NCBI RefSeq assembly: GCF_900187185.1
Contig: NZ_LT906465.1
Location: 496,001-560,000, forward strand
Origin: Chryseobacterium taklimakanense
GTDB lineage: Bacteria > Bacteroidota > Bacteroidia > Flavobacteriales > Weeksellaceae
Direction: 5' to 3'
DNA length: 64,000 nucleotides
Part shown: in pieces, positions 39,848 to 57,892 of the stretch
Layout: each line of letters opens with the position of its first letter
How positions within the stretch are numbered: the stretch's first letter is position 1
Position numbers and translations under genes: made by a program
The notes under the pieces: generated by a model
Told to the model about the DNA's origin: nothing
Database searches by the model: none
The model's input: the letters and a program-made list of their open reading frames with translations, nothing else

Positions 39848-40060
39848 TGAAAGTTCACGCAGTTTTACACATTCCCACACTACACGGAAAAATCTTTGAA
39901 AGGATTTTTCCTATGTGGAAATATGCAAAACTGCTACCTTCAAAAACACACAAAATCAAACTTAACTTTTAAGATTTGCTGTCCAAACTTTGGGGGGAAC
40001 TATAGAAGCTGTGCCCTACAGCCCGTAAAACCCCGCAGAAACCACTTCCCAAGGCTACCC

Positions 40061-40168
40061 AACGCCACAAAAAAAGCAGTCCTTCCGAAAAAACTGCTTT
40101 GTGTAAATAAATTCTAAAAACAATAACTCCATAGACTGCCAAAAAAGCTCCCGAAGGTTCCGTTCAAC
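40061..40168 (+). repeat. Right-end fragment of the recombinase-bearing unit, copy 1
   Basis: From ACGCCACAAAAAAAGCAG to GTTCAAC. Contains a terminator hairpin (AAAGCAGT/ACTGCTTT at 40073-40100) and ends CGAAGGTTCCGTTCAAC, a diverged form of the right end GCTACCGGAGCTTCCGTTC found in copies at 42936, 44317 and 45854. No recombinase gene accompanies this copy. Confidence 0.7.
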
Positions 40169-40216
40169 GGGCTTTCATCTTCTGTCCTGCGGACAAGACG
40201 AAAGCTTAGTTATTAT
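40162..40216 (-). repeat. Short attC-like site of the SMR cassette
   Basis: Read on the minus strand it begins TAATAAC, continues GCTTTCGTCTTGTCC, a GCA loop, GGACAGAAGATGAAAGC, and ends GTTGAAC, which fits the attC core GTTRRRY. The two arms pair with a two-base bulge, the hallmark of folded attC sites. Near-identical sites lie at 43048, 44428 and 45966. Confidence 0.65.
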
Positions 40217-40559: not shown

Positions 40560-40660
40560 TGTTTGTTATTTCTTTTTGTTAAGATAAAATTACTATAATT
40601 TAAATTCTTAGATAGTTTTTTTGTGAAATTCCTTCTATGAAATGGGTTGGATATGCTTGC

Positions 40661-40848
40661 AGATAACGAGAGAGTATTTCTGTATGCGGTGCTGAGGATA
40701 ACAAATCTTGCTACTAATAACCGCCTTGAACAATAATTTTCTCCGCTGACTAAATTACTAAAAAATTGGAAGCGGGGAAATTTTTTGTGGCTAAGGTTAA
40801 CGAATAGTTCTACTGCTAACATTCACCCCCGTATATAGAAATACAATG
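40661..40848 (-). repeat. Long attC-like palindrome L1
   Basis: 188 bp. The outer arms are GTATTTCTGTATGCGG and CCCCCGTATATAGAAATAC, which pair with bulges. Site L2 at 42382 is a close relative. The right end runs ACAATG directly into a copy of the MITE-like repeat. Confidence 0.6.
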
Positions 40849-41235
40849 TGCCTGTTGCACAACCTCTTTTCAAAGATACAAAAAAAAGATTTTAGAAATA
40901 GAAAATGTGGTTATAAACGGGTTTAAAATATTGATATTCAGTTGTATAAATGGTTTGTTTTCAGTAAATTAGCGTATGCAAGGCAGGAAAAACATTTGAA
41001 CCGAAAATCTTCTACGGACTCAGCCTGGACGGACTCGTTCGAACTCCTGCCAAAGTTCCTTTCTAACCAAAGCTTCCACAGTTCGCTTATCACTTCAATT
41101 TAAGCCACCCGAAAACCTCAGCTCCTTTGCCCTACATAAATAGAAACCTCCCTTAAATCGCTTTAAAGGAGGTCGCTTTTTATGGTTTTACTTTGGAAAT
41201 ACTTAAAATTTGGGGTTGTGCAACGGTTACCGATG
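40849..41235 (+). repeat. MITE-like repeat copy 1 (full length)
   Basis: 387 bp from TGCC to GATG. Termini GTTGCACAAC (40854-40863) and GTTGTGCAAC (41215-41224) are perfect inverted repeats. Inside is a remnant start ATGCAAGGCAGGAAA, broken here by an extra A, and a hairpin ACCTCC/GGAGGT near 41145-41185. Flanks show ATGT on both sides. Confidence 0.85.
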
Positions 41236-41268
41236 TTAGCGGTTCGGGCTGTTGGTCTGTGTCATTTG

Positions 41269-41721
41269 TCAGCCTTTAATAGCTGAAAGATATGTCCAAA
41301 CTATAAACAGAATTTGTAACGGTATTCTAAACCACAAATACGTCAATCCGTTTCCGTCAGAAGTCCCTTTTTGATAGTCAATATGATTTATAGCTGCAAA
41401 GATATTTGCAGGAAATATAAGGAGAAAAAATGCAATCAACAGCCACGCTGTAACTATTCGTAAACTCGGGATAAAAAGTCCAACTGCTGCCACAATTTCT
41501 ATAATTCCTGTCAGATAAACGACTGTCGTTTTGTAGGGTATAAAATCGGGCAACATCATTGTCATACCTTTGGTAAATGTGAAATGTGCAACTGCCGTAA
41601 ACACAAGCATTACCGACATTGCAATTCTTCCTGACGAGGCAAAGTCATAATTGCCACGAAAAATTTTAGTTGCAAAAAGCAAAACTGAAAACACAGAAAG
41701 TAATACTAATAAAGGTTTCAT
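41269..41721 (-). CDS. DoxX-family membrane protein
   Basis: 150 residues from the ATG at 41719-41721; a TTG further upstream is less likely. Four membrane segments, with AVAHFTFTKGMTMMLPDFIPYKTTVVYLTGIIEIVAAVGLFIPSLR as the DoxX-like core. The family is linked to redox tolerance and thiosulfate metabolism in some bacteria, but this member's role is unknown. It is in one cassette with the Crp-type regulator, 52 bp downstream of it. The cassette ends read GTTAGCGGT and ACCGCTAAC. Confidence 0.82.
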   Translation of the reverse strand: MKPLLVLLSVFSVLLFATKIFRGNYDFASSGRIAMSVMLVFTAVAHFTFTKGMTMMLPDFIPYKTTVVYLTGIIEIVAAVGLFIPSLRIVTAWLLIAFFLLIFPANIFAAINHIDYQKGTSDGNGLTYLWFRIPLQILFIVWTYLSAIKG

Positions 41722-41772
41722 CTGTATTCTTTTTGGCAAAGATCAGCATATTTATAGTGTGAAACAATGAAC

Positions 41773-42345
41773 CTAAGTTAAGAAAATACGTTTACGTATT
41801 CTGCTCAACGCTTGTGGGGTAACACCAATGTATGAAGAAATATATTTCAATGGGATTTTTTCTATGAGTTTAGGTTGTTCGGTAAATAAATTCAGGTAAC
41901 GCTGTTCGGCAGTTTCGTTTAGAAGCGAAAGTTCTCTTTGGGATTTTTTGAGAAACAAATCTTCGCTTGCCTGTCGTCCAATGGTGTTTCCAATTTCAGT
42001 TTTCTTATATATGCTTTGCAGGTCGTTATATGTCAGTCGCCAAAGCGTTGTTTTTGTTAGCGTCTCTATGTTGTAAGAAGAAGGTGTTTGGGTGAGGAAT
42101 GAATTATAGCCACTTACAAAGTTGTTGTCAAATATAAAAGCGAATGTCAAGTCGTTTTCTTCTTTTGGAATATAGGAACGCACAATGCCTGTTTTAACAA
42201 ATGAAAGGTAGTTTTCTGTTTGTCCCGTTTTTAAGAGAATATAATTTTTAGGAAACTCCTTCCTTATGAGTTTTGAAGAAAAAAACTGCCAATCTTTGTC
42301 TGTCAGCCTAACGTTTTTTTCAAAATATTGTCGTATTTGTTCCAT
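41773..42345 (-). CDS. Crp/Fnr-family transcriptional regulator
   Basis: 190 residues. The cyclic-nucleotide-binding fold spans residues 15-125 (KNYILLKTGQTENYLSFVKTGIVRSYIP, FVSGYNSFLTQTPSSYNIETLTKTTLWRL). The C-terminal helix-turn-helix is IPLKYISSYIGVTPQALSRIRKRI. The Arg and Glu that bind cAMP in E. coli Crp are not seen, as usual in this Bacteroidetes branch, so the ligand is unknown. It probably controls the DoxX gene in the same cassette. Confidence 0.88.
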   Translation of the reverse strand: MEQIRQYFEKNVRLTDKDWQFFSSKLIRKEFPKNYILLKTGQTENYLSFVKTGIVRSYIPKEENDLTFAFIFDNNFVSGYNSFLTQTPSSYNIETLTKTTLWRLTYNDLQSIYKKTEIGNTIGRQASEDLFLKKSQRELSLLNETAEQRYLNLFTEQPKLIEKIPLKYISSYIGVTPQALSRIRKRIFLT

Positions 42346-42381
42346 TATTCATGCTTGCACCGATGTCGGTTAGCCTGACCG

Positions 42382-42568
42382 CTAACGGGAAAAGTATTTC
42401 TGTATGCGGGGCTAAGAATGACAAATCTTCATACTGATAACCACCCTGAACAAAAATTTTCTCTGCCTGCTAAATTACTAAAAAATTGGAAGCGGGGAAA
42501 TTTTTTGTGACTTGGGTGACAAAATAGTTTTACTGCTAAAATTCACCCCCGCATATAGAAATATATTG
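42382..42568 (-). repeat. Long attC-like palindrome L2
   Basis: 187 bp, related to L1 (arms GTATTTCTGTATGCGGGG and CCCCCGCATATAGAAATAT). On the plus strand it runs straight into GTTGAAC, the left end of the recombinase-bearing unit, with no MITE in between. Confidence 0.6.
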
Positions 42569-43054
42569 TTGAACTAAACCTCCGGTAGCTTTTCCCATTC
42601 GCCGTTTTAGTAACTTTGTTTTTATTAACCTTTTAAAAACTCATGAAATGGCTACAAAAAAAAAATCTCCGGAGGATTTAAGGCCTGCCTTGAGCGAAGT
42701 TAACGGTTTTGCCGAACTTCTGCAACGCTTCGAAAGAAATATCTCCATCCTGGGCAAAAGCAAGCGTACCTTCGACAATTATTCCCGTCACGTTGCAGCC
42801 TTAGCGCTTCATTTCGGTAAAGTCCCTACCGAATTAGACCCGGAAGACATCAAAGATTACCTTTTTGAACTTCAAAAGCGATCAAAAACCCTACAGCCCG
42901 CAAAACCCCGCAGAAACCACTTCCAAAGGCCACCCAACGCCACAAAAAAAGCAGTCCTTCCGAAAAAACTGCTTTGTGTAAATAAATTCTAAAAACGACA
43001 ACTCCATAAAAGGATCATCATACTGCTGAAAAGCTACCGGAGCTTCCGTTCAAC
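42568..43054 (+). mobile_element. Recombinase-bearing unit with inverted ends, internally deleted
   Basis: The ends GTTGAAC followed by TAAACCTCCGGTAGCTTTT, and AAAAGCTACCGGAGCTTCC followed by GTTCAAC, are inverted repeats of about 26 bases with a few changes. Inside are a TAACTTTG promoter element (42606-42613), the 5' part of a tyrosine recombinase gene, the right half of palindrome A, and a terminator hairpin (AAAGCAGT/ACTGCTTT near 42948-42973). The end sequences match the attC core GTTRRRY, so the unit occupies a cassette position. Confidence 0.6.
42648..42892 (+). pseudogene. Truncated tyrosine recombinase (N-terminal domain only)
   Basis: The first 81 codons encode an N-terminal core-binding domain: LLQRFERNISILGKSKRTFD followed by NYSRHVAALALHFGKVPTELDPEDIKDYLFELQKRSKT. 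This is the SAM-like domain of Xer-type recombinases of Bacteroidetes. At about 42890 the reading frame runs into palindrome A sequence and stops 33 codons later in repeat DNA. The catalytic domain (Arg, His, Arg, Tyr) is absent, so it is inactive. The IntI-specific insert lies in the missing part, so membership of the integron integrases cannot be tested; the N-terminus looks more like Xer-type enzymes that accompany IS91-like transposases. Confidence 0.75.
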
Positions 43055-43102
43055 GGGCTTTCATCTTCTGTCCTGCGGACAAGACGAAAGCTTAGTTATT
43101 AT
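43048..43102 (-). repeat. Short attC-like site of the 43.1-43.8 kb cassette
   Basis: Same sequence as the site at 40162: arms GCTTTCGTCTTGTCC and GGACAGAAGATGAAAGC with a GCA loop, core GTTGAAC on one side and TAATAAC on the other. Confidence 0.65.
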
Positions 43103-43113
43103 GTGCAGTGCTT

Positions 43114-43362
43114 TTATGATTTTGTTCTTGAGTTAATCTCCTTTTTTATATTATTTATCGTGTTAAAATTTACTATCCCAATTGGTAATAAAGCGATTGG
43201 AATTATTATTAAGGGTGTAAAACCTTTTGTGAAAGTTATGTATAATGAAAGTCCAAAGAGAACAATTAAAGTTCCCAAAAGTATTCCTGTTATTGCCTTT
43301 AATGATTTCTCAGTTTTTTTTAATTCTTCGGTGGTTTTCTCGGTTAGTTTCTCATTTTTCAT
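43114..43362 (-). CDS. Small two-helix membrane protein
   Basis: 82 residues. A charged helical N-terminus (KLTEKTTEELKKTEKSLKA) is followed by two membrane segments (residues 22-42 and 48-68) and a Lys-rich tail. I do not recognise a defined family; similar cassette proteins are often labelled 'redox-active disulfide protein 2', although no cysteine is present here. Its ATG follows the stop of the upstream gene at once, so both are translated together. Confidence 0.6.
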   Translation of the reverse strand: MKNEKLTEKTTEELKKTEKSLKAITGILLGTLIVLFGLSLYITFTKGFTPLIIIPIALLPIGIVNFNTINNIKKEINSRTKS

Positions 43363-43833
43363 TTAGTTCTTGTTATTTGTTAATTCTATAGTCTTGATTG
43401 CTCCCACTGGTGAAATTTTCACATTTTTATTTCCTTTTTCAACATAAAAGTAATTTGCACTATTTGAGCCAATCAAATATACCTCTTTTGTTTCATTTGT
43501 GTTAAAAGTTATTTTATAATCATAATTTAAGTTATTATTTGAAATTTTTTCTGAAACCTTAATCCCATTTCCGATTCCAATGCCGAGAAAGAAAGAAAGC
43601 AAACCAATTGCAAACATTACAATAAATATTTTTCCAAAGTATGATTTAACTTCATCTTCTGATAATTTTGTCAAGGATTTTTTAGAACCGACAATTTTTC
43701 TTAACCATTCTTTTTTGTGATTTTTGGAAAGAATGTAAATAGTCAAAGAAAGTACAGAAAAAAATATAATAAAACCAAATAGAATAATTAGATGTGAGGT
43801 TAAATCAGCAATCGGACTTATTAAAATGTCCAT
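43363..43833 (-). CDS. Membrane protein of unknown function
   Basis: 156 residues from the ATG at 43831-43833. Two membrane segments (about residues 14-36 and 66-88) enclose a basic cytosolic loop (KNHKKEWLRKIVGSKKSLTKL). After the second comes a beta-rich domain of about 65 residues, probably periplasmic (DYKITFNTNETKEVYLIGSN). Family unknown to me. It shares a cassette with the two-helix protein and is adjacent to it without a gap. Cassette ends are GTTATGTGCAATGC and GCACTGCACATAATAAC. Confidence 0.6.
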   Translation of the reverse strand: MDILISPIADLTSHLIILFGFIIFFSVLSLTIYILSKNHKKEWLRKIVGSKKSLTKLSEDEVKSYFGKIFIVMFAIGLLSFFLGIGIGNGIKVSEKISNNNLNYDYKITFNTNETKEVYLIGSNSANYFYVEKGNKNVKISPVGAIKTIELTNNKN

Positions 43834-44004
43834 AATGTTTGAATATTTCAAAATATTTATTCCAATTTGGTGATAAAAAACACTCTATTTAATTATTCCA
43901 AGAACAACAAGGAATAAATAACCAAAAGGTAATAATTTTTGTAAATTTTCGCTAAATTTCATCTGTTTTTCGTGTTTTGTGGCGAATTTTTCATAGCATT
44001 GCAC

Positions 44005-44186
44005 ATAACGGAAAAAGTATTGGCGAAGTGCGGGCAAAATGGAACGAAAAGTTCAATTTAAACTACACGTAGCCGATGCTTTTTTCTTACACTAAATTAC
44101 TCTTTTTTGTGGAATAAATAAGCAGCGGCGATAAATTTTACAAAAAGTTCAACTTCCCCTTCTCCCCGCATTTTGCCAATACAGTG
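44005..44186 (-). repeat. Long attC-like palindrome L3
   Basis: 182 bp. Arms AGTATTGGCGAAGTGCGGG and CCCGCATTTTGCCAATAC pair with bulges. Sites L4 and L6 are close relatives (AGCAGCGGCG in the inner part of all three). Followed at once by a MITE-like repeat. Confidence 0.65.
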
Positions 44187-44318
44187 TGCCTGTTGCACAA
44201 CGTCTTTTCAAAGATGCAAAAAAAAGATTTCAGAAATAGAAAATTGGTTATAAACGGGTTTAAAATATTGAAAATCAATTGTATATATCGTTTATTCTCC
44301 GTAAATTAGCGTATGCAA
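44187..44318 (+). repeat. MITE-like repeat copy 2 (left third only)
   Basis: Starts TGCC and GTTGCACAAC like the others but stops at GCGTATGCAA, where it is joined to the right-end fragment of the recombinase unit. The junction shares the bases CAA, as in a deletion by short homology. Confidence 0.8.
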
Positions 44319-44482
44319 CGCCACAAAAAAGCAGTCCTTCCGAAAAAACTGCTTTGTGTAAATAAATTCTAAAAACGACATCCCCATAAGAGGACCATCA
44401 TACTGCTGAAAAGCTACCGGAGCTTCCGTTCAACGGGCTTTCATCTTCTGTCCTGCGGAAAAGACGAAAGCTTAGTTATTAG
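44317..44482 (-). repeat. Right-end fragment of the recombinase unit (copy 3) with short attC-like site
   Basis: 44317-44434 repeats the terminator hairpin and the right end GCTACCGGAGCTTCCGTTC. 44428-44482 is the short attC-like site, as at 40162 and 43048, ending TTAGTTATTA. Confidence 0.7.
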
Positions 44483-44488
44483 CCACAG

Positions 44489-44947
44489 TTATTTTTTTCC
44501 AATTCCAGGGGCATGGTGGGCGATTTGGTTTTCTGTCAAGTTTCCAGCTTTTTCTTTTAGTAATAATTTTCTAACGGCAATTACTACTGTCAACTCATTA
44601 TTTGCTTGATTGGGATTAGCAATTGCTTGAACCATTTGACTATATATTTCTGCTGGTAGCCACATTGCTAATTCCCACGAAAGTTTGTTAGCCTTTCTGT
44701 ACTCTTCTTCTGTTGAATTCTCACGTAGGCTCCTTGCCAACGAAATATATTCTGCTACTCCTTCTGCTCTTTCTCTTACTTTCACTTCCCATTGAAGGTC
44801 AGTATTAAACTGAGTATGCTCCTTTTGCAAAGCAAGTTTAATTCGTTCAACAATCCAGGTTTTAGCTATTAATGAAATCAAAGTCATAAAAGCTGTTGTA
44901 GCTATAGATGAACCAAGAATTATTTTTATTATGTCAATTGTATTCAT
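44489..44947 (-). CDS. Membrane-anchored protein of unknown function
   Basis: 152 residues. One N-terminal membrane segment (residues 5-28: IIKIILGSSIATTAFMTLISLIAK) is followed by a soluble helical domain (LALQKEHTQFNTDLQWEVKVRERAEGVAEYISLARSLRENSTEEEYRKANKLSWELAMWLPAEIYSQMVQ). The layout resembles small cassette-borne proteins annotated as hypothetical in many genomes. No catalytic motif is visible. Alone in its cassette; the upstream core GTTAGTCAGA is only weakly complementary to the downstream end. Confidence 0.6.
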   Translation of the reverse strand: MNTIDIIKIILGSSIATTAFMTLISLIAKTWIVERIKLALQKEHTQFNTDLQWEVKVRERAEGVAEYISLARSLRENSTEEEYRKANKLSWELAMWLPAEIYSQMVQAIANPNQANNELTVVIAVRKLLLKEKAGNLTENQIAHHAPGIGKK

Positions 44948-44994
44948 AATCTCTGTTTATAATTCTGACTAACGTTAAACTTTACTATTGATAA

Positions 44995-45764
44995 TCAAAT
45001 TGTTTTGAATTCAATATCCTTATTAGTCAGTCCAAATTTAGTGATTTGTTTTTGTATTCTTTTGGCTGCTGCTATTTTTCTTTTCTCGTCCAGAAAAAGG
45101 TATTGTGAAGGCGGATTGTACCCTTTCCTCTTAACGAGCATATTCCAGATAATGACGGCGAGCTTTCGGGCGAGTGCAGAAACAGCAGTTGCCCTTCCTT
45201 TTTTGTAGCTTAATCTTTTGAAGAACTCTGCCAGCCATCCCTCCTTTAGGTTGCCGATGGCATTGGCCGTGTTTCTGAATGCTATTTTCAGCCGCGAACT
45301 TCCCTTCGGAATGTGGTTGGATAATACTTTGCCACCACTTATTTTGTTGTTGGGGGCGAGCCTGAGCCATGCGGTGAATTGTTTTGCAGTGGGGAATTTT
45401 CTAATCCCATCTAATCCGACTTCTGCGATGAGAGCCATAATCAACCCTTCGCTTACCCCCTCAATCGCCATCAAGTCTATCCCTTCAAAATATTGGTAAG
45501 CAATTAAATTCATGTCGGTTTGGCTTACTGCGTTTTTATTTTTACGCTTGTGCTTTTTTTTTCAATGGTATGCTGTTTCTTATGGTCGTCCTTCTCGATG
45601 AATTCCTTCAGGAGCCGGTCGATCTGCAAATCCGTATCCATGATTTGTTGCTGGAGGTGTTTGTAGGAATCCCACTCTTGCTGCAAGGCAAAGAGATAAT
45701 CTTTGCGCCCATTGCCGTTTTCGGGCAGCGCGGTCCGCCACAGGATTTTCTTTTCGTTAACCAA
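44995..45764 (-). pseudogene. IS110-family transposase fragment, frameshifted
   Basis: Two minus-strand frames belong to one protein: 45525-45764 (RKDYLFALQQEWDSYKHLQQQIMD to LKEFIEKDDHKKQHTIEKK) and 44995-45513 (NLIAYQYFEGIDLMAIEGVSEG, then FTAWLRLAPNNKISGGKVLSN and SSRLKIAFRNTANAIG). The second is the Transposase_20 domain of IS110/IS116. One extra A in the A9 run at 45554-45562 would join them (KKKHKRKNKNAVSQTDMN). The N-terminal DEDD domain is missing because the frame starts at the border of palindrome A. No element ends were found. Confidence 0.85.
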
Positions 45765-46022
45765 CCTTTCTCTGCGGAATCACCTTTGCGGGTAAGGGAA
45801 GCTGTGCCCTACAGCCCGCAAAACCCCGCAGAAACCACTTCCCAAGGTTACCCAACGCCACAAAAAAAGCAGTCCTTCCGAAAAAACTGCTTTGTGTATC
45901 TAAATTCTAAAAACGACAACTCCATAAAAGGATCAACATACTGCTGAAAAGCTACCGGAGCTTCCGTTCAACGGGCTTTCATCTTCTGTCCTACGGACAA
46001 GACGAAAGCTAATTTGTTATCT
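45763..46022 (-). repeat. Intact palindrome A, right-end fragment (copy 4) and short attC-like site
   Basis: 45763-45853 is palindrome A without insertion, with GGGTAAGGGAAGCTGTGCCC in its loop (the empty site of the IS3). 45854-45972 is the right-end fragment with its terminator hairpin. 45966-46022 is the short attC-like site, here ending in the clean core GTTATCTGCCG. Confidence 0.75.
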
Positions 46023-46030
46023 GCCGTTTT

Positions 46031-47671
46031 TTATTTGTTCAAGAAATTTAATATCTTATTATTGAGAATTTCAGGTTGGTCAAAAGGAACATTATGTGTA
46101 CTATTTTGAATAATTTGTAATTTTGCATTTTCAATCTTTTTAGCAATTTTTTTGGTATGTTCTAATTTAATTTCGTCATTGTCGCCTGCGATTACTAAAA
46201 CAGGATTTTTTATTTTTTGCAAATCATTATCACTAATATTTGGGTAATTTATCATCAAGTTCAATCTTCTCTTTTCTTTTTCGTCATCCGTATTTTCATA
46301 CCTTTCTTTGATCGATAGTAATAATTCTTCTTTTACGCCATTTGGGTTTGTATTTGCACCAATTGTAATTAATTTATTTACAAGATTAGAATTTTGGGAA
46401 GTAAAGATTAAACCTGTAATTCCGCCATCACTCCAACCAAGAATGTTTACTTTCTGTAATTTCAATTGTTTTACTATTTGAAACAAATCATCTGCAAGTT
46501 TTTCATAACCATAATCTTTTTCCGCAAAGTCTAAACTTTTCCCTTGCGCTCTTGTGTCCAATGCAATAACACGAAATTGTTTTGAGAGAAATGGAATTTG
46601 ATTATGAAAATCTGAAATTAATCCATTATTTCCTTCCAGTAAGATTAAAGGTTCTCCAATTCCATATTCTTCATAATAGATTTTGGCATCATCAAGGTTT
46701 ATATATTTTCCATTAGGATTTTTGCCGTAAATTGTTTTCAGACCTTCTTCTCTTCCTTTATAAAAACTAATCAGCTTTTTCTCAATTTCATTTTCCTTCT
46801 TTTCTTCATGATTGTTTTTTCTCTGAAAGTCAGTTGTTCCTTTTTCATCGTAACTAACATTAATATTGGTCAAAAAAGTTCCATCGCTTTTTTCCCATAG
46901 CGATTGACTTTGAAATCTAAACATCAGATTTTTTGAGAGTGATTTCTTTGCGGAAATTCCAAAAACAAAATCTGTGTCCTCCAAAGTATTGTAGTCGACT
47001 AATTGCAGTGTAACGGCGATTCTGTCTAAATTATTAAAAATCAATTTATATTTTGATAAGTCTATTGTTTGCCAACCTTTTGTAGAGGTTTTGTAAATAA
47101 TATTTTCATCCAAAAGTGATTGGTTTGGCAACGAGTTTTTCACATCGTAGATATTTAACTTTAATGTAATCTCTTCATATTTAGAACTTGGAATAATATG
47201 AAAACTGAAAGATTTCAATTTTGTTTTTTTATAAATCTCAAAAACATTACCCTGTTCAATCGTTGGAACATTTTTTTCAAACATTTTAGAAAAGGTCAAC
47301 ATTGGTCGAGATTTTTCCCCTATAGTTTTTTCCTTTAATTTTTTTGTGGTTAAAACCACTTCCTGAATATTTGAAGTTTTGAATTTTAAATATATATTGG
47401 GGTTCACTTTTAATTCTGAAATTTCAACATTCTTCTCCTCATAACCATCTGCTTTAAAAACTACATTTTTATTCTGCACTTCCTTTGGAATAATGATTTT
47501 ATAAATTCCATTTTCATTGGTAATTGCTCCGATATCTGTATCTTTAATTCCAATTGCGCAGTAAGACAGGTTTTTGTTTTCCTCGTTCTTTACAACACCT
47601 TGAATGATTGTTTGTGAATTAATGAAAATAGTTGTTAAAACGAGTATAAATGAGGACAATTTTAATTTCAT
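46031..47671 (-). CDS. Secreted alpha/beta hydrolase with N-terminal carboxypeptidase-like beta domain
   Basis: 546 residues with a signal peptide (MKLKLSSFILVLTTIFINSQ). Residues 22-95 are a carboxypeptidase D regulatory-like domain (IIQGVVKNEENKNLSYCAIGIKDTDIGAITNENGIYKI). Residues 100-320 form an unassigned beta-rich region. The last 220 residues are an alpha/beta hydrolase: KIYYEEYGIGEPLILLEGN, nucleophile elbow NILGWSDGGITGL (Ser), Asp in VIAGDNDEIKLEH and His in QNSTHNVPFDQP. The serine hydrolase is complete and should be active in the periplasm or outer membrane. It is unusually long for a cassette gene. Its far cassette boundary has been lost, since only the right part of a MITE follows the gene start. 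Confidence 0.85.
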   Translation of the reverse strand: MKLKLSSFILVLTTIFINSQTIIQGVVKNEENKNLSYCAIGIKDTDIGAITNENGIYKIIIPKEVQNKNVVFKADGYEEKNVEISELKVNPNIYLKFKTSNIQEVVLTTKKLKEKTIGEKSRPMLTFSKMFEKNVPTIEQGNVFEIYKKTKLKSFSFHIIPSSKYEEITLKLNIYDVKNSLPNQSLLDENIIYKTSTKGWQTIDLSKYKLIFNNLDRIAVTLQLVDYNTLEDTDFVFGISAKKSLSKNLMFRFQSQSLWEKSDGTFLTNINVSYDEKGTTDFQRKNNHEEKKENEIEKKLISFYKGREEGLKTIYGKNPNGKYINLDDAKIYYEEYGIGEPLILLEGNNGLISDFHNQIPFLSKQFRVIALDTRAQGKSLDFAEKDYGYEKLADDLFQIVKQLKLQKVNILGWSDGGITGLIFTSQNSNLVNKLITIGANTNPNGVKEELLLSIKERYENTDDEKEKRRLNLMINYPNISDNDLQKIKNPVLVIAGDNDEIKLEHTKKIAKKIENAKLQIIQNSTHNVPFDQPEILNNKILNFLNK

Positions 47672-47722
47672 ATTTCTATTTTTAGCAATAAGTCGTTAAA
47701 ACTTCTATAATTTTTATGTAAT

Positions 47723-47834
47723 CTCCTTTGTTCGACAAAATAGAAGTCTCCCTTAAATGCTTTAAAGGAGGTCGTTTTTTATGGTTTTACTATTGAAATA
47801 CTGAAAATTTGGAGTTGTGCAACGGTTACCGATG
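47723..47834 (+). repeat. MITE-like repeat copy 3 (right end only)
   Basis: 112 bp corresponding to the last third: hairpin AGTCTCCC/GGAGGTC, then GTTGTGCAAC (47814-47823) and CGATG followed by TTATGG. The left part and the neighbouring attC-like site are missing. Confidence 0.8.
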
Positions 47835-47850
47835 TTATGGACAGTGCTTT

Positions 47851-48579
47851 TTACATTTCATAGAGTGTTGTATAACAATCAACTCGGTAAGTTTCAATTC
47901 TTAAATTATATTCATCTATATTTTGCGATTCGTTAAATAATTTATAAACTCGTCCATTCTCTTTGTCCCAAATGTAAGTAGGTCTTATACCATTTTTTCC
48001 ATCTTCTAATATTTCTTTAAATAATTTTGATGTTCTTTCCAAGCAATTTTTTGGCTCTTCATCCTTGTATTTTGATTTTCGAGGTGAAAATTCTACAAAA
48101 TCTTCGAACATTTGAGGTTTTTTTTCAAGCATATCTTCTGTATTTAAAACACTTGTAATAAGTTGAATAAAAACTTGCTGTTTTTCGTCAGCACTTAATT
48201 TTAAGTTAACTGCACTTTTTTGGAGTTCTTTTTCGAATGTTGTATTTGTTTTAGAAAATTTGCTTTTTTCAATTTCATTTTTAAAATTCCAAAAGTCATA
48301 ATACATATTTGAAAGAAAAGGAATTGCATAAAATTTATTTCCTTTTTGAAAGACTAAAATTTCGTCATAATCTATTTTATCAATATTACGGTAAAGTGAA
48401 ATTGCTAAAGAGTTAAATTCAACTTTCTTAATTTTTTCCAGTTTTTTGTCAATAAATGGAAATTGTTTAAGAACGAAATTTATGCTTTCTTGTTCATTTT
48501 CAGAAACTTTATTTAATTTTTCATTTTTACAAGAAAAAGCAAAACATAATACAAAAATTATTAAGATTCTGAATTTCAT
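47851..48579 (-). CDS. Lipoprotein of unknown function
   Basis: 242 residues from the ATG at 48577-48579 (MKFRILIIFVLCFAFSCKN), a lipoprotein signal with Cys at the cleavage site; an in-frame extension to 48660 runs into attC-like DNA and is rejected as start. The mature protein is charged and mostly helical (EQESINFVLKQFPFIDKKLEKIKKVEF, KQQVFIQLITSVLNTEDMLEKKP) with a C-terminal beta region (TYIWDKENGRVYKLFNESQNIDEYNLRIETYRVDCYTTLYEM). I do not recognise the family. Single gene in its cassette; ends GTTATCTGCAATG and CACTGTCCATAAC are partly complementary. Confidence 0.65.
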   Translation of the reverse strand: MKFRILIIFVLCFAFSCKNEKLNKVSENEQESINFVLKQFPFIDKKLEKIKKVEFNSLAISLYRNIDKIDYDEILVFQKGNKFYAIPFLSNMYYDFWNFKNEIEKSKFSKTNTTFEKELQKSAVNLKLSADEKQQVFIQLITSVLNTEDMLEKKPQMFEDFVEFSPRKSKYKDEEPKNCLERTSKLFKEILEDGKNGIRPTYIWDKENGRVYKLFNESQNIDEYNLRIETYRVDCYTTLYEM

Positions 48580-48765
48580 TTTGTTGCGGAGTTTTTGGAA
48601 CATTGCAGATAACGGAAAAAGTATTGGCGAAGTGCGGGCTAAATGGAACGAAAAGTTCAATTAAGACTAAACGGAGCCGATGCTTTTTTCGGATTGTTAA
48701 ATTAAGAAGAAAATCAATACGAAAAAGCAGCGGCGGATAATTTTTCAAATGGTGGATTCAAACAT

Positions 48766-49951
48766 CTAACGCAACGGTTAGATTGGGTAAAATTATGATA
48801 AAGTTTTGATATCTTAAATAAAATATGGATAACTTTTTCAGCCTTTTTGGGCAAAAAGTTCCCCACATTTTATTTTCTTCGACAACAGCGTTGTTTTTCA
48901 TTTTAATTGATTTAGGATGAACTGGTTAAAGACATCTTTTGGGGTTTGGTAGTCCAAAACTTTTCTGGGTCTCTCATTGAGTTCGTTTTGGACCTGTTTA
49001 ATTTTTTTGTTGGTTATTTTATTGAAGTCCGTTCCTTTGGGGAAGTAGTCCCGCACTAAGCCGTTTGAGTTTTCATTGGTAGGTCTTTCCCAGGGCGAGT
49101 AGGGATGGGTAAAATAGACCTGTATCTTGGTGTTTTTGGTGAAGAGTTTATGTTCGCTCATTTCTGTCCCATTGTCGTAGGTAAGTGTTTTACGCATGGT
49201 TTTGGGAATTTTCAGGAGTTCCTTTTCGAAAGCTTTTCTCACCGTGGCTGCGTTCTTGTTTTTTAGGGGAACGATAATGATGGTTCTCGTGGATCTTTCG
49301 ACGAGTGTCCCGATGCATGACTTGTGGTCTTTCCCGATGATAAGGTCGCCTTCCCAATGTCCGGGGATTTCCCTTCCAAGGACTTCTTCGGGTCTTTCGT
49401 CGATGGAGACACGGTCCTTAATTTTGGGTTCCAGGACGGCCCTTGTTTTAAAGTTTCCTCTGGATTTTCTTTCCTGCCGGAGCTGGGCAATAAGTTCCTT
49501 TTTAAGTTCACTTTTACAGTGTACATAGATGTAGAGATAAATGGCTTCGTGGGAGATATTCATGGCTTTGTCATTGGGGTAAAGTCTTTTCAAAGTAACG
49601 GATATTTGGTCTGGCGACCAGCGCAGGGCGAGCTTTTGGTGGATGAATTCCTTAAGTTTTGGATTGGAGGATATTTTTGTTTTTCCGTCCTTTCTGTACA
49701 TCGACCTGCAGAATGCTTTTCTGTTGGCGTGGTCTGCCTTGTAGGAACAGTGTGCATAGCGGTTGGTTTTGAGTTCTCTTGCGATGGTGGATTTGGCTCT
49801 GTTTAATTTTTTGGCAATTTGCGAGACGGAGTATTTAAGATTCCTGAATTCTTCAATTTTCACCCTCTCGGCAAAGGTTAATCTTCTGTAATTTTTCATA
49901 GCGACAAACGTAAAATAAATAAGTTAATTTCTTTAACATTTGTTGCGTTAG
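48766..49951 (-). mobile_element. IS30-family insertion sequence
   Basis: About 1186 bp. Ends are CTAACGCAAC at 48766-48775 and its complement GTTGCGTTAG at 49942-49951. The flanking dinucleotide AT on each side fits a 2-bp target duplication. The left end has about 120 bp of non-coding AT-rich DNA before the gene end. Confidence 0.8.
48898..49899 (-). CDS. IS30-family transposase
   Basis: 333 residues. The N-terminal helix-turn-helix is YRRLTFAERVKIEEFRNLKYSVSQIAKKLNRAKSTIARELKTNRY. The DDE core is GHWEGDLIIGKDHKSCIGTLVERSTRTIIIVPLKNKN (first Asp), TLTYDNGTEMSEHKLF (second Asp) and SPWERPTNENSNGLVRDYFPKGTDF (Glu). The C-terminus RPRKVLDYQTPKDVF is typical. All catalytic residues are present, so it may be functional. 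It lies inside an attC-like palindrome of the cassette array. Confidence 0.95.
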   Translation of the reverse strand: MKNYRRLTFAERVKIEEFRNLKYSVSQIAKKLNRAKSTIARELKTNRYAHCSYKADHANRKAFCRSMYRKDGKTKISSNPKLKEFIHQKLALRWSPDQISVTLKRLYPNDKAMNISHEAIYLYIYVHCKSELKKELIAQLRQERKSRGNFKTRAVLEPKIKDRVSIDERPEEVLGREIPGHWEGDLIIGKDHKSCIGTLVERSTRTIIIVPLKNKNAATVRKAFEKELLKIPKTMRKTLTYDNGTEMSEHKLFTKNTKIQVYFTHPYSPWERPTNENSNGLVRDYFPKGTDFNKITNKKIKQVQNELNERPRKVLDYQTPKDVFNQFILNQLK

Positions 49952-50012
49952 ATTATTGAACCGGCGAATCTTTCAACTTAAAACGTCTCCCCCGCCTTTT
50001 GCCAATACACTG

Positions 50013-50400
50013 TGCCTGTTGCACAACCTCTTTTCAAAGATACGGTAAAAAAGATTTCAGAAATAGAAAATGTGGTTATAACCGGGTTTAAAATATTGAT
50101 ATTCAGTTGTATAAATGGTTTGTTTTCCGTAAATTAGCGTATGCAAGGCAGGAAAACATTTGAACCGAAAATCTTCTATGAACTCAGCCTGCAATGGCTC
50201 GTTCGAACTCCTGCCAAAGTTCCTTTCTAACCAAAGCTTCCACAGTTCGCTGATCACTTCAATTTAAGCCACCCGAAAACTTCAGCTCATTTGCCCGACA
50301 TAAATAGAAACCTCCCTTAAATCGCTTAAAAGGAGGCCGTTTTTTATGGTTTTACTTTGGAAATTACTGAAAATGTGGAGTTGTGCAACGGTTACCTATG
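50013..50400 (+). repeat. MITE-like repeat copy 4 (full length)
   Basis: 388 bp, termini GTTGCACAAC (50018-50027) and GTTGTGCAAC (50380-50389). A remnant peptide start at 50141 reads MQGRKTFEPKIFYELSLQWL; in another frame the 3' part reads ELLPKFLSNQSFHSSLITSI and stops. These look like the first and last parts of a transposase after internal deletion. The right tip supplies the stop codon of the gene ending at 50392. Confidence 0.85.
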
Positions 50401-51114
50401 TTCTCTGTCGTTTTTTAATTCAATATTAATTCTTTTATCCAGTTCATTTATTTTCTTAACTAAACCCTTTCCAGCCATTGCTCTTTCACGTCTGCTTATC
50501 TGTATTTTCCATAAATAACTTAAAAGAATATTTCTTTCATCATTATTTAATTTAATTGGTAGATTTATTCCAATAATGTGTCCAGTTGTTTTATCAAATT
50601 TCAAATTTGGGGCAATTTTTTTATTTATCTCAATAAAATAGTTGTCAAAAAACTGATTTTCTTGATATTCTTCTTCGAATTTTCTCATTACTTCATAGTC
50701 AAATTCGTATAAATGAATAATTTTTTCTCGCAAAGAATCATTTTCTATTGCTTCTAAACCCTTAGATTTTAAAGTTTCGTATGCAGTAATATTTTGAACA
50801 GAAATTAAACTTCTAGTAAGTAAAAAGTAATACATTGCAACTGAATCATTTTCTGCTTTGTTTTCTACAATTGCTTTCCTCCAAAATTTACAAGCCTTAT
50901 CTCCATTTTTATGAGCCTCAATATTGCTCATCACATCATAACTATCACTTTTTAAACCATTTGATATTTCTAATAGAATTTTTTCTTGAGAGACTTTTTT
51001 ACCTTGATTATTACTCCATTCAGTTAATGCAAATGCAAGAATAACACTTATGAAAATCAAAGCGAACTCTGGAAAATATTTTTTAAAGAAAATTGTAATC
51101 TTTTCTTTAAGCAT
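50392..51114 (-). CDS. DUF6090-like membrane-anchored protein
   Basis: 240 residues from the ATG at 51112-51114. KKYFPEFALIFISVILAFALTEWSNNQGKK is a single membrane segment near the N-terminus, and the following helical domain (KILLEISNGLKSDSYDVMSNIEAHKNGDKACKFWRK; ITAYETLKSKGLEAIENDSLREKIIHLYEFDYEVM) fits the DUF6090 family of Bacteroidetes. Function unknown. Its start overlaps the end of the small DUF4177-like gene by 8 bases. The last three codons and the stop (GAA CAT AGG TAA) are made of cassette-end and MITE sequence. Confidence 0.72.
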   Translation of the reverse strand: MLKEKITIFFKKYFPEFALIFISVILAFALTEWSNNQGKKVSQEKILLEISNGLKSDSYDVMSNIEAHKNGDKACKFWRKAIVENKAENDSVAMYYFLLTRSLISVQNITAYETLKSKGLEAIENDSLREKIIHLYEFDYEVMRKFEEEYQENQFFDNYFIEINKKIAPNLKFDKTTGHIIGINLPIKLNNDERNILLSYLWKIQISRRERAMAGKGLVKKINELDKRINIELKNDREHR

Positions 51115-51307
51115 CTTTTTCAAAAAACAAATAAATATAAACTGCAAATCCGAAATTGGTTGAAGTCGTTGAAGTTAGTTTATATCCATTTTTAGAATAT
51201 TCATCCAATTTTTCTTGAATTTCTTCTTTTGACTTTTTCACAATGTGTTCAGAATCAAGTGTTAACTTAGTGTAATAAATTAAAGATTCAACTTTGTATT
51301 CCTTCAT
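51107..51307 (-). CDS. DUF4177-like small protein
   Basis: 66 residues. MKEYKVESLIYYTKLTLDSE then EIQEKLDEYSKNGYKLTSTTSTNFGFAVYIYLFFEKD is the DUF4177 pattern (a short beta-alpha-beta fold). Function unknown. It is the first gene of a two-gene cassette with the DUF6090-like gene. Cassette ends are GTTATCTGTC and GACAGAGAAC. Confidence 0.65.
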   Translation of the reverse strand: MKEYKVESLIYYTKLTLDSEHIVKKSKEEIQEKLDEYSKNGYKLTSTTSTNFGFAVYIYLFFEKDA

Positions 51308-51345
51308 AATATTTAATTTTTAACGGTTTTTTGTTTAAAATGACA

Positions 51346-51534
51346 GATAACGGAACGGGGCTTTGCTAGGTGCGGGGCTACTTCAACTAAAAGTGAAGAG
51401 GAGAACCGAACGCTAGCAAAATATTTTTCCATTTTTTAAAATTATGAAAAAACTAAAAAATGGAAAAGTTTTTTGCGGGTATTTTCTACAAATTATCTAA
51501 CATTTCCTTCACCCCGCATCTTGCAAAACCCATG
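51346..51534 (-). repeat. Long attC-like palindrome L5, no MITE
   Basis: 189 bp. Arms GGGCTTTGCTAGGTGCGGGG and CCCCGCATCTTGCAAAACCC pair with two bulges. It ends CATG and the next cassette begins TTC directly, so this is an uninterrupted site, useful for comparison with those carrying a MITE. Confidence 0.7.
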
Positions 51535-51554
51535 TTCAAAAGTTTCTTTATTCA

Positions 51555-52280
51555 TCATTTAATTATTATGTCATAAATAATTGCAATTATTGATGCTAAA
51601 ATTCCAAAGGTGAGCATTCCTATAATGTATGCGGAAAATGCTTTTAGATAACTAGAAAATTTTCTTTCAAAAACACTTCCAATTGCAAAACTAATATATG
51701 CAAAAACTAGCCAATAAATCGCACTACTTAAAATTGGAATTTTCAAATATTTTGAAATAATTGGTTCAATAGATAACAATAACATAGATTCACCGACCAC
51801 AAAGCAAAGTATAACAATGACTTCATAAAAATTGAATTTATATTTTCTGAAAAAAATATTGGTCCAAAAAGCAACAAATAAAAGCATCAAAATATTTGCA
51901 TATCCATAATTTCCCTGAATCCAATTAAATATTGTGATAATGCTTGAATTTCCATAAATTTCTTTAAATTTTTCCTCGTTTTCTATTACTATTTGAAGAT
52001 AATTTACAACTAGAGTATAGATAACGGAAGATAAAATCAAAAATGTTAATGGCTTTGTAAGTTTATTTCTGTTTGTTTTTAGATAAGCGGAAATGTTTTG
52101 AGTTGGTCTTAATAATAATTCCTTGAAAGTATATAAAAACCCCTTTTCATAACCAATTAAGTTAAGAAATTCATTTTTCGCATAATTTTTGTCAATTCTG
52201 TCAAAGGTAGAATTCTGTCCGCAGTTACTACAAAAATTTCCGATTACAATTTGTCCGCAATTTTGGCAATTTTCGCCCAT
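51555..52280 (-). CDS. DUF3667 membrane protein with N-terminal zinc ribbon
   Basis: 241 residues. The start MGENCQNCGQIVIGNFCSNC has two CxxC pairs, a zinc ribbon. FLNLIGYEKGFLYTFKELLLRPTQNISAYLKTNRNKLTKPLTFLILSSVIYTL is the DUF3667 pattern, followed by about five membrane segments. Function unknown; the zinc ribbon faces the cytosol. It is two bases downstream of the small membrane protein gene and in the same cassette. Confidence 0.8.
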   Translation of the reverse strand: MGENCQNCGQIVIGNFCSNCGQNSTFDRIDKNYAKNEFLNLIGYEKGFLYTFKELLLRPTQNISAYLKTNRNKLTKPLTFLILSSVIYTLVVNYLQIVIENEEKFKEIYGNSSIITIFNWIQGNYGYANILMLLFVAFWTNIFFRKYKFNFYEVIVILCFVVGESMLLLSIEPIISKYLKIPILSSAIYWLVFAYISFAIGSVFERKFSSYLKAFSAYIIGMLTFGILASIIAIIYDIIIK

Positions 52281-52281
52281 T

Positions 52282-52542
52282 TTATTTTAAATTTCTTGAA
52301 TTTATTTCATTTTTTAATTCTTTTTCAAATTCATTTCTTTTCTGTCCACGGATAAACAGTATAAAAGCAAAGAACAAAGGAAAAAAAGTAAAAAAGGTAA
52401 ATCCGCTTTTTACTGCGCTATATGCAAAAACCCCTAAAAATAATCCAATTAATGATGCATTTATTATTTTGTTAGTGTCAAATTTCTTTTTTTCTTGAAG
52501 TAATTCTTGGTCATTTAATTCTTTTAGTTTTATTGAGTCCAT
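52282..52542 (-). CDS. Small membrane protein of unknown function
   Basis: 86 residues. A charged N-terminal helix (KELNDQELLQEKKKFDTNKI), two closely spaced membrane segments (residues 27-46 and 50-66) and a charged tail (GQKRNEFEKELKNEINSRNLK). The architecture is like the two-helix protein at 43114 in another cassette. First gene of its cassette. Confidence 0.6.
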   Translation of the reverse strand: MDSIKLKELNDQELLQEKKKFDTNKIINASLIGLFLGVFAYSAVKSGFTFFTFFPLFFAFILFIRGQKRNEFEKELKNEINSRNLK

Positions 52543-52584
52543 TTCTATGATATATTTTGTTTGCGTTATTTTATGAAATTTCTG

Positions 52585-52767
52585 CTAACAAAAAAGTATT
52601 GGCGAAGTGCGGGCTAAATGGAACGATAAGTTCAATTTAGACCTAAACGTAGCCGATGCTTTTTTCTTACACTAAATTACTCTTTTTTGTGGAATAAAAA
52701 AGCAGCGGCGGATAAATTCACAAAAAGTTCAACTTGTTACTTTCCTCCGCATTTTGCCAACACAATG
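52585..52767 (-). repeat. Long attC-like palindrome L6
   Basis: 183 bp, arms AGTATTGGCGAAGTGCGGGC and CCGCATTTTGCCAACAC, close to L3 and L4. Followed at once by MITE copy 5. Confidence 0.65.
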
Positions 52768-53151
52768 TGCCTGTTGCACAACCTCTTTTCAAAGATACGG
52801 TAAAAAAGATTTCAGAAATAGAAAATGTGTTTATAAACGAATTTAAAATATTGATATTCAGTTGTATAAATGGTTAATTTTTCGTACATTAGCGTAAGCA
52901 AGGCAGAAAAACATTTGAACCGAAAATATTCTACGAACTCAGCCTGCAATGGCTCGTTCGAACTCCTGCCAAAGTTCCTCTAACCAAAGGTTCCATAGTT
53001 CGCTGATCACTTCAATTTAAGTCACCCTAAATTCTGAACTCTTTGTCCGACAAAAATAGAAACCTCCCTTAAATCGCTTCAAAGGAGGTCGCTTTTTATG
53101 CTTTTACTTTGGAAATACTGAAAATTTGGGGTTGTGCAACGGTTACGTGTG
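52768..53151 (+). repeat. MITE-like repeat copy 5 (full length)
   Basis: 384 bp, termini GTTGCACAAC (52773-52782) and GTTGTGCAAC (53131-53140). The right edge is diverged (GGTTACGTGTG instead of GGTTACCGATG) before the cassette start TTAGCGG. Confidence 0.85.
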
Positions 53152-53191
53152 TTAGCGGCAGACATTTGGATAATGAGTTTCTTTATTTTAC

Positions 53192-53812: not shown

Positions 53813-54000
53813 GATTCATAATATTAAGTTGTTCTTTAAATTTCACCTATAAAGGTACGAAAAGAATCATCATAACAATGATCCAATATTGATTATTGCA
53901 TCAAACGAAGTAAAAAAGCGTCGAAGATAGACCGCGAGATAACAAACTGACAAAAGCAATGCTCGGAATAGGTAAGGCTTGAGGCGATTTTCGCTTGCCG

Positions 54001-54125
54001 CTAACGTGCCGCGGCTTTGCGCAGTTGCGATGCCAGCGGGTTGATTAATTTCTGTTAAAGATAAAAGTTTTTCGTGAAGAAAAGCCTCACGTTTAAACAA
54101 AACCAGCAATTGCTCAAAACCGCTG
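54001..54125 (-). repeat. attC-like palindrome L7
   Basis: 125 bp. Arms GCGGCTTTGCGCAGTTGC and GCAATTGCTCAAAACCGC pair with few mismatches. Different sequence from L1-L6 but the same architecture and the same position relative to the following MITE. Confidence 0.7.
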
Positions 54126-54511
54126 TGCCTGTTGCACAACCTCTTTTCAAAGATACGGTAAAAAAGATTTCAGAAATAGAAAATGTGGTTATAAGAGAGT
54201 TTAAAATATTGATATTCTGTTGTATAGATAGCTTGTTTTTCAGTAAATTAGCGTATGCAAGGCAGGAAAAACATTTGAACCGAAAATCTTCTATGAACTC
54301 AGCCTGGACGAGCTCGTTCGAACTCCTGCCAAAGTTCCTCTAACCAAAGGTTCCACAGTTCGCTGATCACTTCATTTTAAGCCACCCGAAAACCTCAGCT
54401 CCTTTGCCCGAAAAAAAATAGAAACCTCCCTTAAATCACTTTAACGGAGGTCTTTTTTATGCTTTTACTTGGAAATCCTGAAAATTTGGAGTTGTGCAAC
54501 GGTTACCGATG
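54126..54511 (+). repeat. MITE-like repeat copy 6 (full length)
   Basis: 386 bp, termini GTTGCACAAC (54131-54140) and GTTGTGCAAC (54491-54500). Its right tip provides the TAA stop (54503-54505) of the broken TfoX-type gene. Confidence 0.85.
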
Positions 54512-57040: not shown

Positions 57041-57148
57041 TTCTTGATAAGTTATTTCTCCGTCATTTTTAGAAACTGTCGGTTGAATTGGTTTGTAGTA
57101 TTTTCTTATTGTTTCCAATTTTCTACGGGAGTTTTGATAGCATTCCTC

Positions 57149-57235
57149 ATAACGGTTCAGGGCTTGGCGTTCGGGCGGAAATTTCGGCACGAAATTTCCG
57201 TTTAGAACGTCAGCCCGCCTGACGCCAAACCCACG
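57149..57235 (-). repeat. Compact attC-like palindrome L8
   Basis: 87 bp. Arms GGGCTTGGCGTTCGGGCGG and CCGCCTGACGCCAAACCC pair with two small bulges, and the inner part GGAAATTTCGGCACGAAATTTCC is itself a hairpin. This is the most attC-like site of the array in length and shape. Followed at once by MITE copy 7. Confidence 0.7.
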
Positions 57236-57623
57236 TGCCTGTTGCACAACCTCTTTCCAAAGATACGGTAAAAAGATTTCAGAAATAGAAAATGTGGTTA
57301 TAAACGGGTTTAAAACATTGATATTCAGTTGTATAAATGGTTTGTTTTCCGTGAATTAGCGTATGCAAGGCAGGAAAACATTTGAATCGAAAATTTTCTA
57401 TGAACTCAGCCTGGACAGGCTCGTTCGAACTCCTGCCAAAGTTCCTCTCTAATTCACAGGTTCCATAGTTCGCTGATCACTTCAATTTTAAGCCACCCGA
57501 AAACCTGAACCCCTTTGTCCGACAAAAATAGAAACCTCCCTTAAATCGCTTTAAAGGAGGTTGTTTTTTATGGTTTTACTTTGGAAATCCTGAAAATTTG
57601 GGGTTGTGCAACGGTTACCGATG
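57236..57623 (+). repeat. MITE-like repeat copy 7 (full length)
   Basis: 388 bp, termini GTTGCACAAC (57241-57250) and GTTGTGCAAC (57603-57612). Internal remnant start reads MQGRKTFESKIFYELSLDRL. Its right side touches the recombinase-unit remnant at 57624. Confidence 0.85.
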
Positions 57624-57840
57624 CTGAACTGAACCTTCGGCAGTTTTACCAATTGCCACCATCAGTTACTTTGTGCAGTTAATTAGCAATGGATGAAAAC
57701 TATCCAAAAACAGGAGACTCTTCCCGAAGTCTCCTGTATTGCTTTAAAATCTTCCGCCGACAAACCCATCAAGGTGAAAAAAGTTCCGAAGCTTCCGTTT
57801 AACAGGAGTTGATCTGATTTTTCAATTTATTGCTGGGTTA
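57624..57840 (+). mobile_element. Second recombinase-unit remnant at the right edge of the array, gene deleted
   Basis: The left part CTGAACTGAACCTTCGGCAG is homologous to the left end of the unit at 42568 (TGAAC.AACCT.CGG.AG). The right part TTCCGAAGCTTCCGTTTAAC (57790-57810) is homologous to its right end. Between them are a terminator hairpin (AGGAGACT/AGTCTCCT at 57709-57734) and no recombinase gene. The rest of the stretch up to the xth stop has nothing that I can support. Confidence 0.55.
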
Positions 57841-57892
57841 TGAAGCCTGCCGAAACTCTGGTTAAGGACACCATAAAACCTGGAAAAAACTC

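What the first reader, a model, noticed from the sequence alone, without database searches (positions are those of the whole stretch)
42568..43054. A tyrosine-recombinase unit that occupies a cassette position, with cassette-core-like inverted ends
The unit starts GTTGAAC and ends GTTCAAC, both fitting the attC core GTTRRRY, and its ends are inverted repeats over ~26 bases (CTCCGGTAGCTTTT and AAAAGCTACCGGAG). It carries the N-terminal domain of a Xer-like recombinase and a terminator. Four more partial copies (right ends at 40061, 44317 and 45854; both ends at 57624) also sit at array cores. An integrase carried inside the array rather than beside attI would be a new arrangement. The alternative is an IS91-like element with an accompanying recombinase that targets GTTC/GAAC.
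Basis: partly seen in the sequence, partly recalled or inferred. Interest (0 to 1): 0.8.

Follow-up and report, generated by a model that had tools for sequence, protein, structure and literature searches.

The report
IS91 transposon inserted into integron attC
The unit is a shortened copy of a transposon carrying two recombination enzymes that, in dozens of independent cases, has inserted at one exact point of the recombination sites of integron-like gene-cassette arrays in flavobacteria; I found no description of either the targeting or these arrays.

Summary
The observed unit is real, but it is larger than described (42569-43098) and is not a cassette. It is an internally deleted copy of an IS91-family element that encodes a Xer/IntI-like tyrosine recombinase plus a Y2 HUH transposase. 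Two identical full copies lie elsewhere in the genome; relatives occur in 38 of 296 genomes of the family and on Chryseobacterium, Myroides and Sphingobacterium plasmids.

Insertion is strikingly specific. In 55 of 68 distinct junctions the left end abuts, to the base, an attC-like site. The right end carries a conserved 53-54-nt hairpin, followed by the rest of that same attC. An empty/occupied pair with identical flanks puts the crossover at G^TT. The element splits attC at its R'' core and lies opposite to the cassette genes.

The arrays are integron-like: in 96 cassettes tested, 83 have a 5' core complementary to their own R'' (about 5 expected), and a different tyrosine recombinase, lacking the IntI-specific insert, sits at array ends.

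How the transposase and the recombinase share the work is inferred, not shown.

The parts
42569..43098 (+). The unit: internally deleted IS91-family element with tyrosine recombinase (base 42568 G belongs to the target core G^TT)
   Evidence: Ends set by 78 left and 74 right junctions and an empty/occupied pair; parent-like copies in L117 and L116, 92-98% identical over the two halves
42568..42594 (+). Left (ter-side) inverted repeat, GTTGAACTAAACC...
42648..42992 (+). Truncated recombinase ORF, 114 aa; about the first 82 residues are the N-terminal SAM-like part, no catalytic domain
42948..42975 (.). Terminator-like inverted repeat inside the unit
43028..43054 (+). Right inverted repeat, ending GTTCAAC
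43048..43098 (+). Right-end (ori-side) attC-like hairpin with A.C mismatch and 2-nt bulge; part of the element
   Evidence: Covariation over 28 distinct hairpins; folds
42379..42568 (+). Larger part of the attC that the unit has split
   Evidence: R1 hit 42379-42570, 55 bits; last two bases TT are shared with the element
43099..43108 (+). Displaced R'' core of the same attC, TTATGTGCAG, at the 3' end of the minus-strand cassette gene 43114-43362
   Evidence: Core GTTATGTGC equals the 5' core of its own cassette at 44002
40014..40212 (+). Partial copy: right end with hairpin
44316..44478 (+). Partial copy: right end with hairpin
45807..46010 (+). Partial copy: right end, altered 3' border
57624..57864 (+). 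Older relic with both ends and a decayed hairpin (right border approximate)
40660..40850 (+). attC-like site (D2 MITE inserted at its end)
   Evidence: R1 hit
44002..44188 (+). attC-like site
   Evidence: R1 hit
51344..51536 (+). attC-like site
   Evidence: R1 hit
52582..52769 (+). attC-like site
   Evidence: R1 hit
53998..54127 (+). attC-like site
   Evidence: R1 hit
57146..57237 (+). attC-like site
   Evidence: R1 hit

Best explanation
The unit is a non-autonomous deletion derivative of an IS91-family element that carries a tyrosine recombinase (TR) gene overlapping a Y2 HUH transposase gene. The element inserts site-specifically, at G^TT, into the R'' core of integron-type attC sites, inverted relative to the cassettes, so it splits an attC rather than joining the array as a cassette. 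Its right end is a conserved hairpin; in a circular form this hairpin would be flanked by complementary boxes GTTCAA/TTGAAC, so the element carries an attC-like site of its own. Most likely mechanism: the HUH transposase nicks near the hairpin end and releases a single-strand copy; the element's TR then recombines the folded hairpin with a folded attC, exchanging one strand at the AA^C/G^TT point that integron integrases also use; replication resolves the junction. Shown: identity, ends, target, crossover position, orientation, conserved hairpin. Inferred: single-strand intermediate, TR as the strand-exchange enzyme, division of labour.
For: Full copies encode PF00589 TR and Y2_Tnp/Zn_Tnp_IS91. 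55 of 68 distinct left junctions end exactly on an attC-like site. Right-flank core equals the 5' core of the same cassette in 38 of 42 rows (32 of 36 distinct), about 3 expected by shuffling. Empty/occupied pair with identical flanks gives G^TT and no duplication beyond TT. The hairpin covaries in 8 of 14 pairs with fixed mismatch and bulge, and the architecture persists in Tenacibaculum with a different sequence. All 38 genomes with the element also have attC hits, against 198 of 296 overall (hypergeometric P 6e-8; relatedness not corrected).
Against: No transposition was observed. The TR could be accessory. Cores differ by one base from a perfect attC crossover (A instead of G at the right end). 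13 of 68 left junctions lack a scorable attC, some by loss of one arm. R1 was trained on 23 sites taken beside the element. In a Bradyrhizobium relative the same inverted-repeat-plus-hairpin layout occurs without any attC test, so the hairpin may be older than attC targeting.
Confidence: 0.6

Rival explanations
1. The HUH transposase alone performs targeted rolling-circle insertion: the hairpin is the ori end and GTT in a folded attC is the target word. The TR is an accessory, for example a resolvase of circles or cointegrates.
For: IS91-family transposases insert beside a short fixed target word without target duplication (own knowledge). The hairpin lies at the end downstream of the transposase gene, where IS91 elements have their ori end.
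Against: The target is a whole attC-type site, not just a tetranucleotide, and the crossover falls inside the core at the point used by tyrosine recombinases of integrons (PMC4792948). The TR gene is kept, overlapping the transposase gene, over a wide range of hosts.
Confidence: 0.27
2. The element is a true cassette captured by the array's own integrase, with the hairpin as its attC.
For: Its start TTGAAC is complementary to the box GTTCAA before its hairpin, as in cassettes. A TR unlike its own lies at array ends.
Against: It lies inverted and at R'', splitting an attC; cassettes of these arrays join at R'. No attI or R' junction was seen among the junctions read. Hairpin sequences differ from array attC sites.
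Confidence: 0.07
3. One reading: the TR carried inside the array is the enzyme that shuffles the cassettes, an integron whose integrase travels in the array.
For: The TR belongs to the broad Xer/IntI set (TIGR02249 176 bits, below its cut-off), and the element was found only in genomes with such arrays.
Against: 198 of 296 genomes have attC hits but only 38 have the element. A different recombinase lies at array ends in fixed orientation next to the first cassette. The window copy has no catalytic domain. The tree separates the two.
Confidence: 0.04
4. Chance or a plain GTTC/GTTA preference: attC sites are only hit because they contain the target word.
For: IS91 elements favour short words such as GTTC/CTTG (own knowledge).
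Against: GTT occurs everywhere, yet 55 of 68 junctions are at the last base of an attC-like site, always in the same orientation to it.
Confidence: 0.02

Closest known systems
IS91 family, in particular members with an upstream tyrosine recombinase gene
   Same: Y2_Tnp plus Zn_Tnp_IS91 transposase, no target duplication, hairpin at the end downstream of the transposase; the gene pair is annotated in public records
   Different: Target is the R'' core of attC-type sites rather than a free tetranucleotide; the right end forms an attC-like structure
IS1111-attC group (ISKpn4, ISPst6)
   Same: Insertion sequences that target one end of attC sites (PMC11187229)
   Different: They use a DEDD transposase guided by a seekRNA; this element has an HUH transposase and a tyrosine recombinase
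Integron gene cassettes
   Same: Start TTGAAC complementary to the R''-like box GTTCAA, hairpin with unpaired spacer and bulges, crossover at G^TT
   Different: Inverted orientation, inserted at R'' inside another attC, carries its own recombinase and transposase
CTXphi integration by XerCD
   Same: Tyrosine recombinase without the I2 insert acting on a folded single strand (PMC4792948); here proposed only
   Different: The phage borrows host XerCD and targets dif; this element brings its own TR and targets attC

Membership tests
IS91 family | Y2 HUH transposase with IS91 zinc-binding domain | tested here: met
   PF04986 211 bits and PF14319 112 bits in the full copy; the window unit itself has lost the gene
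IS91 family | No target-site duplication | tested here: met
   Empty/occupied pair: only TT shared
IS91 family | Rolling-circle transposition from an ori end | not testable with these tools
   Hairpin present at the expected end; activity not tested
Integron gene cassette | 5' core complementary to its own R'' and attC-like fold at the 3' end | tested here: met
   TTGAAC / GTTCAA around a conserved hairpin
Integron gene cassette | Located between cassettes, joined at R' or attI in array orientation | tested here: not met
   Splits one attC at R'', inverted
Integron integrase (IntI) | IntI-specific I2 insert and score over TIGR02249 cut-off | tested here: not met
   176 bits versus cut-off 265; 68 aa between GKGKKDR and LRHS where IntI1/IntI2 have 106
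IS1111-attC group | DEDD transposase and seekRNA-encoding region | tested here: not met
   Transposase is Y2_Tnp with a tyrosine recombinase; seekRNA region not searched for
IS1111-attC group | Site-specific insertion at one end of attC | tested here: met
   shared way of working, not membership
Integron (the surrounding arrays) | Array of cassettes whose 5' core is complementary to their own R'', with folded attC sites | tested here: met
   83 of 96 cassettes perfect over 5 bases, 4.8 expected
Integron (the surrounding arrays) | IntI-type integrase with I2 insert beside attI | tested here: not met
   An array-end tyrosine recombinase exists but lacks the insert and scores below the cut-off; none lies in the window

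The most novel reading that the evidence does not exclude
A transposon that joins HUH single-strand release to integron-style folded-strand recombination by its own tyrosine recombinase without I2 insert: it carries an attC mimic and integrates by an attC x attC-like exchange into integrons that are themselves run by integrases without I2. It would be a self-mobile, cassette-like parasite of an unrecognised integron lineage.
Probability: 0.4. Interest if true: 0.88.

Novelty: new variant of a known kind. Interest (0 to 1): 0.72.

Why it matters
It adds a second, unrelated kind of transposon that homes to attC sites, and one whose own end looks like an attC, which bears on how attC recombination arose. 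It also exposes large attC arrays in Weeksellaceae; IntegronFinder 2.0 reported, in Bacteroidetes proper, one complete integron, in Salinibacter ruber (PMC9024848). A Riemerella study found an aph gene integrating without flanking homology, together with a 140-bp attC-like 3' segment, by an unexplained mechanism (PMC13148043); these arrays and their end recombinase offer a candidate that can be tested. An integron that works without the I2 insert would make the origin of integron integrases directly testable.

Tried and rejected
A strict search for AAC...GTT hairpins found nothing useful, because attC arms are imperfect and offset; a tolerant scan and then a covariance model worked. Pfam runs in wrong frames failed and were repeated. 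'Integrase moving as a cassette' was rejected by orientation, core used and the split attC. 'Plain GTTC preference' was rejected because junctions lie at attC ends to the base. The D2 MITE was not traced to a full-length parent. No held paper that I found describes an IS91 element with a recombinase targeting attC or attC arrays in Weeksellaceae; most subscription papers are not held, so this is weak evidence of novelty. The tree has long branches; only the clade of Bacteroidota element TRs is relied on.

Full report
WHAT IS THERE. The window lies in a one-contig 2.76-Mb genome. Its family is inferred to be Weeksellaceae: a member of the same family (G238) has a 57,213-base contig with the element at the coordinates of the Chryseobacterium oryzae plasmid NZ_CP094530. 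The unit begins GTTGAAC at 42568, and a 27-base inverted repeat (24 identical) ends GTTCAAC at 43054. Its ORF keeps only the N-terminal SAM-like part of a tyrosine recombinase.

FULL-LENGTH COPIES. Two identical copies, 2376 bp between the outer ends of the inverted repeats, lie at 605358-607733 and 2281422-2283797 of the genome. Each encodes a tyrosine recombinase (PF00589, 121 bits) overlapping, at ATGA, an IS91-type transposase (Y2_Tnp 211 bits, Zn_Tnp_IS91 112 bits). The transposase has relatives at E<=1e-60 in 38 of 296 family genomes, and the pair is found on plasmids of Chryseobacterium, Myroides and Sphingobacterium. The window unit is nearest to copies in L117 and L116, 86-98% identical over its two halves, so it arose by an internal deletion.

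ENDS. I collected 78 distinct left and 74 distinct right ends; the left list includes right inverted repeats read from the other strand, leaving 68 true left junctions with enough flank. The left end is GTTGAACTAAACC. The right end continues past GTTCAAC into a 53-54-nt hairpin and diverges only after CTTAGYTATT. Over 28 distinct hairpins, 97.4% of cells pair and 8 of 14 pairs change on both sides; sliding the partner lowers pairing to 33-52%. The A.C mismatch and the 2-nt bulge stay in place while the stem changes, also in a distant Tenacibaculum copy. Joined to the left end, the hairpin gains complementary boxes GTTCAA/TTGAAC and an unpaired spacer, which is attC-like.

TARGET. Left flanks are long imperfect hairpins bounded by NNTAACG and GTT, in two length classes of about 125-132 and 188-194 nt. 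A covariance model (R1) from 23 of the shorter class finds sites in the window only at 40.6-57.3 kb, all on one strand. 55 of 68 distinct left junctions lie exactly at the last base of an R1 hit. The 23 training sites came from these flanks, so the independent support is the remainder plus the tests below. The 13 exceptions are right arms whose left arm is not recognised, other elements' hairpins, MITE ends, and a few sites without a visible attC.

EMPTY SITE. L139 holds the same attC and cassette without the element. Against the occupied Myroides copy (L055), 101 bases left and 120 bases right are identical: GCCAATACGATG^TTGTACGACG versus GCCAATACGATG[TTGAAC...CTTAGTTA]TTGTACGACG. This is the AA^C (G^TT) point at which integron integrases cut the bottom strand of attC (PMC4792948).

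THE ARRAYS ARE INTEGRON-LIKE. In G113 and similar genomes R1 sites recur about every 600 bp over tens of kilobases, on one strand (weaker antisense echoes reflect the palindrome). In 96 cassettes, the five bases after the 5' core GTT are complementary to the same cassette's R'' in 83; shuffling gives 4.8 on average and 13 at most. That relation is the mark of integron cassettes and does not depend on the element. R1 sites occur in 198 of 296 family genomes. A tyrosine recombinase family of about 356 aa (112 of 296 genomes) lies at the array end, oriented against the cassette genes and next to a first cassette that begins at G^TT. The own-genome member scores 194 bits for TIGR02249 (cut-off 265) and lacks the I2 insert (60 aa where IntI1/IntI2 have 106). 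No IntI passes the cut-off in this genome, and no array-end recombinase lies in the window.

THE ELEMENT SPLITS ONE ATTC. If it sat between cassettes, the core to its right would belong to another cassette. Instead the right-flank core equals the 5' core of its own cassette in 38 of 42 rows (32 of 36 distinct; 3.2 expected, maximum 10 in 2000 shuffles). In the window, GTTATGTGC right of the unit equals the core at 44002. The element thus separates R'' from the rest of that attC and lies inverted to the genes. Capture by the array integrase should give R' or attI junctions in cassette orientation; none were seen among the junctions read.

MECHANISM. Shown: identity, boundaries, target, crossover, orientation, conserved hairpin. 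Inferred: HUH release of a single strand, folding, and strand exchange by the element's own recombinase with the folded top strand of attC. The element TRs of Bacteroidota form one clade (100/100), apart from the array recombinases and from IntI1/IntI2. Whether the HUH protein or the TR performs the final exchange is open; I put roughly two to one on the TR.

KNOWN AND NEW. IS91 elements with a companion recombinase are annotated in public records, and IS1111-attC elements that home to attC are known (PMC11187229). I found no description of an IS91 element homing to attC, nor of attC arrays in Weeksellaceae; IntegronFinder 2.0 reports in Bacteroidetes proper one complete integron, in Salinibacter (PMC9024848). 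In Riemerella, homology-free integration of a gene with an attC-like 3' segment was observed and left unexplained (PMC13148043). The finding itself I rate a new variant of a known kind; the arrays around it may deserve more interest than the unit.

Noticed in passing
L163-L182; window 40660-57237: Large attC arrays, integron-like by core complementarity, with a tyrosine recombinase lacking the IntI I2 insert at the array end; R1 sites in 198 of 296 family genomes.
   Followed up: partly
window 40848-41238, 44186-44329, 47726-47837, 50012-50402, 52767-53154, 54125-54506, 57235-57618: A second mobile unit ('D2', about 390 bp, inverted ends with GGTTGTGCAAC) sits at the same core of attC-like sites as the element; ten matches in the genome, no full-length parent found.
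   Followed up: partly
L055 1922-7340; L057 5300-7330: On Myroides plasmids the resistance genes aadS, blaMYO-1 and blaOXA lie between R1 attC-like sites, as if they were cassettes of this array type, with the element splitting the attC of aadS.
   Followed up: partly
L049 2133-2160: In the identical full copies the first ATG of the recombinase leads into a stop after an A-run; one more A would restore the frame, so the start may be internal or the run may slip.
   Followed up: no
L144 1887-3060: Another internal deletion derivative: recombinase residues 1-141 joined directly to transposase residues 275-385, so loss of the middle recurs.
   Followed up: no
L183 3398-5968: A Bradyrhizobium plasmid IS91 element with recombinase has a similar layout: inverted repeats GGATTGAACGAAG / CTTCGTTCAATCC followed by a hairpin; its target was not examined.
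   Followed up: partly
L148 (minus strand 4670), L140 (minus strand 784): Copies whose left end abuts what look like decayed hairpins of other elements, as if the element's own hairpin can serve as a target.
   Followed up: no
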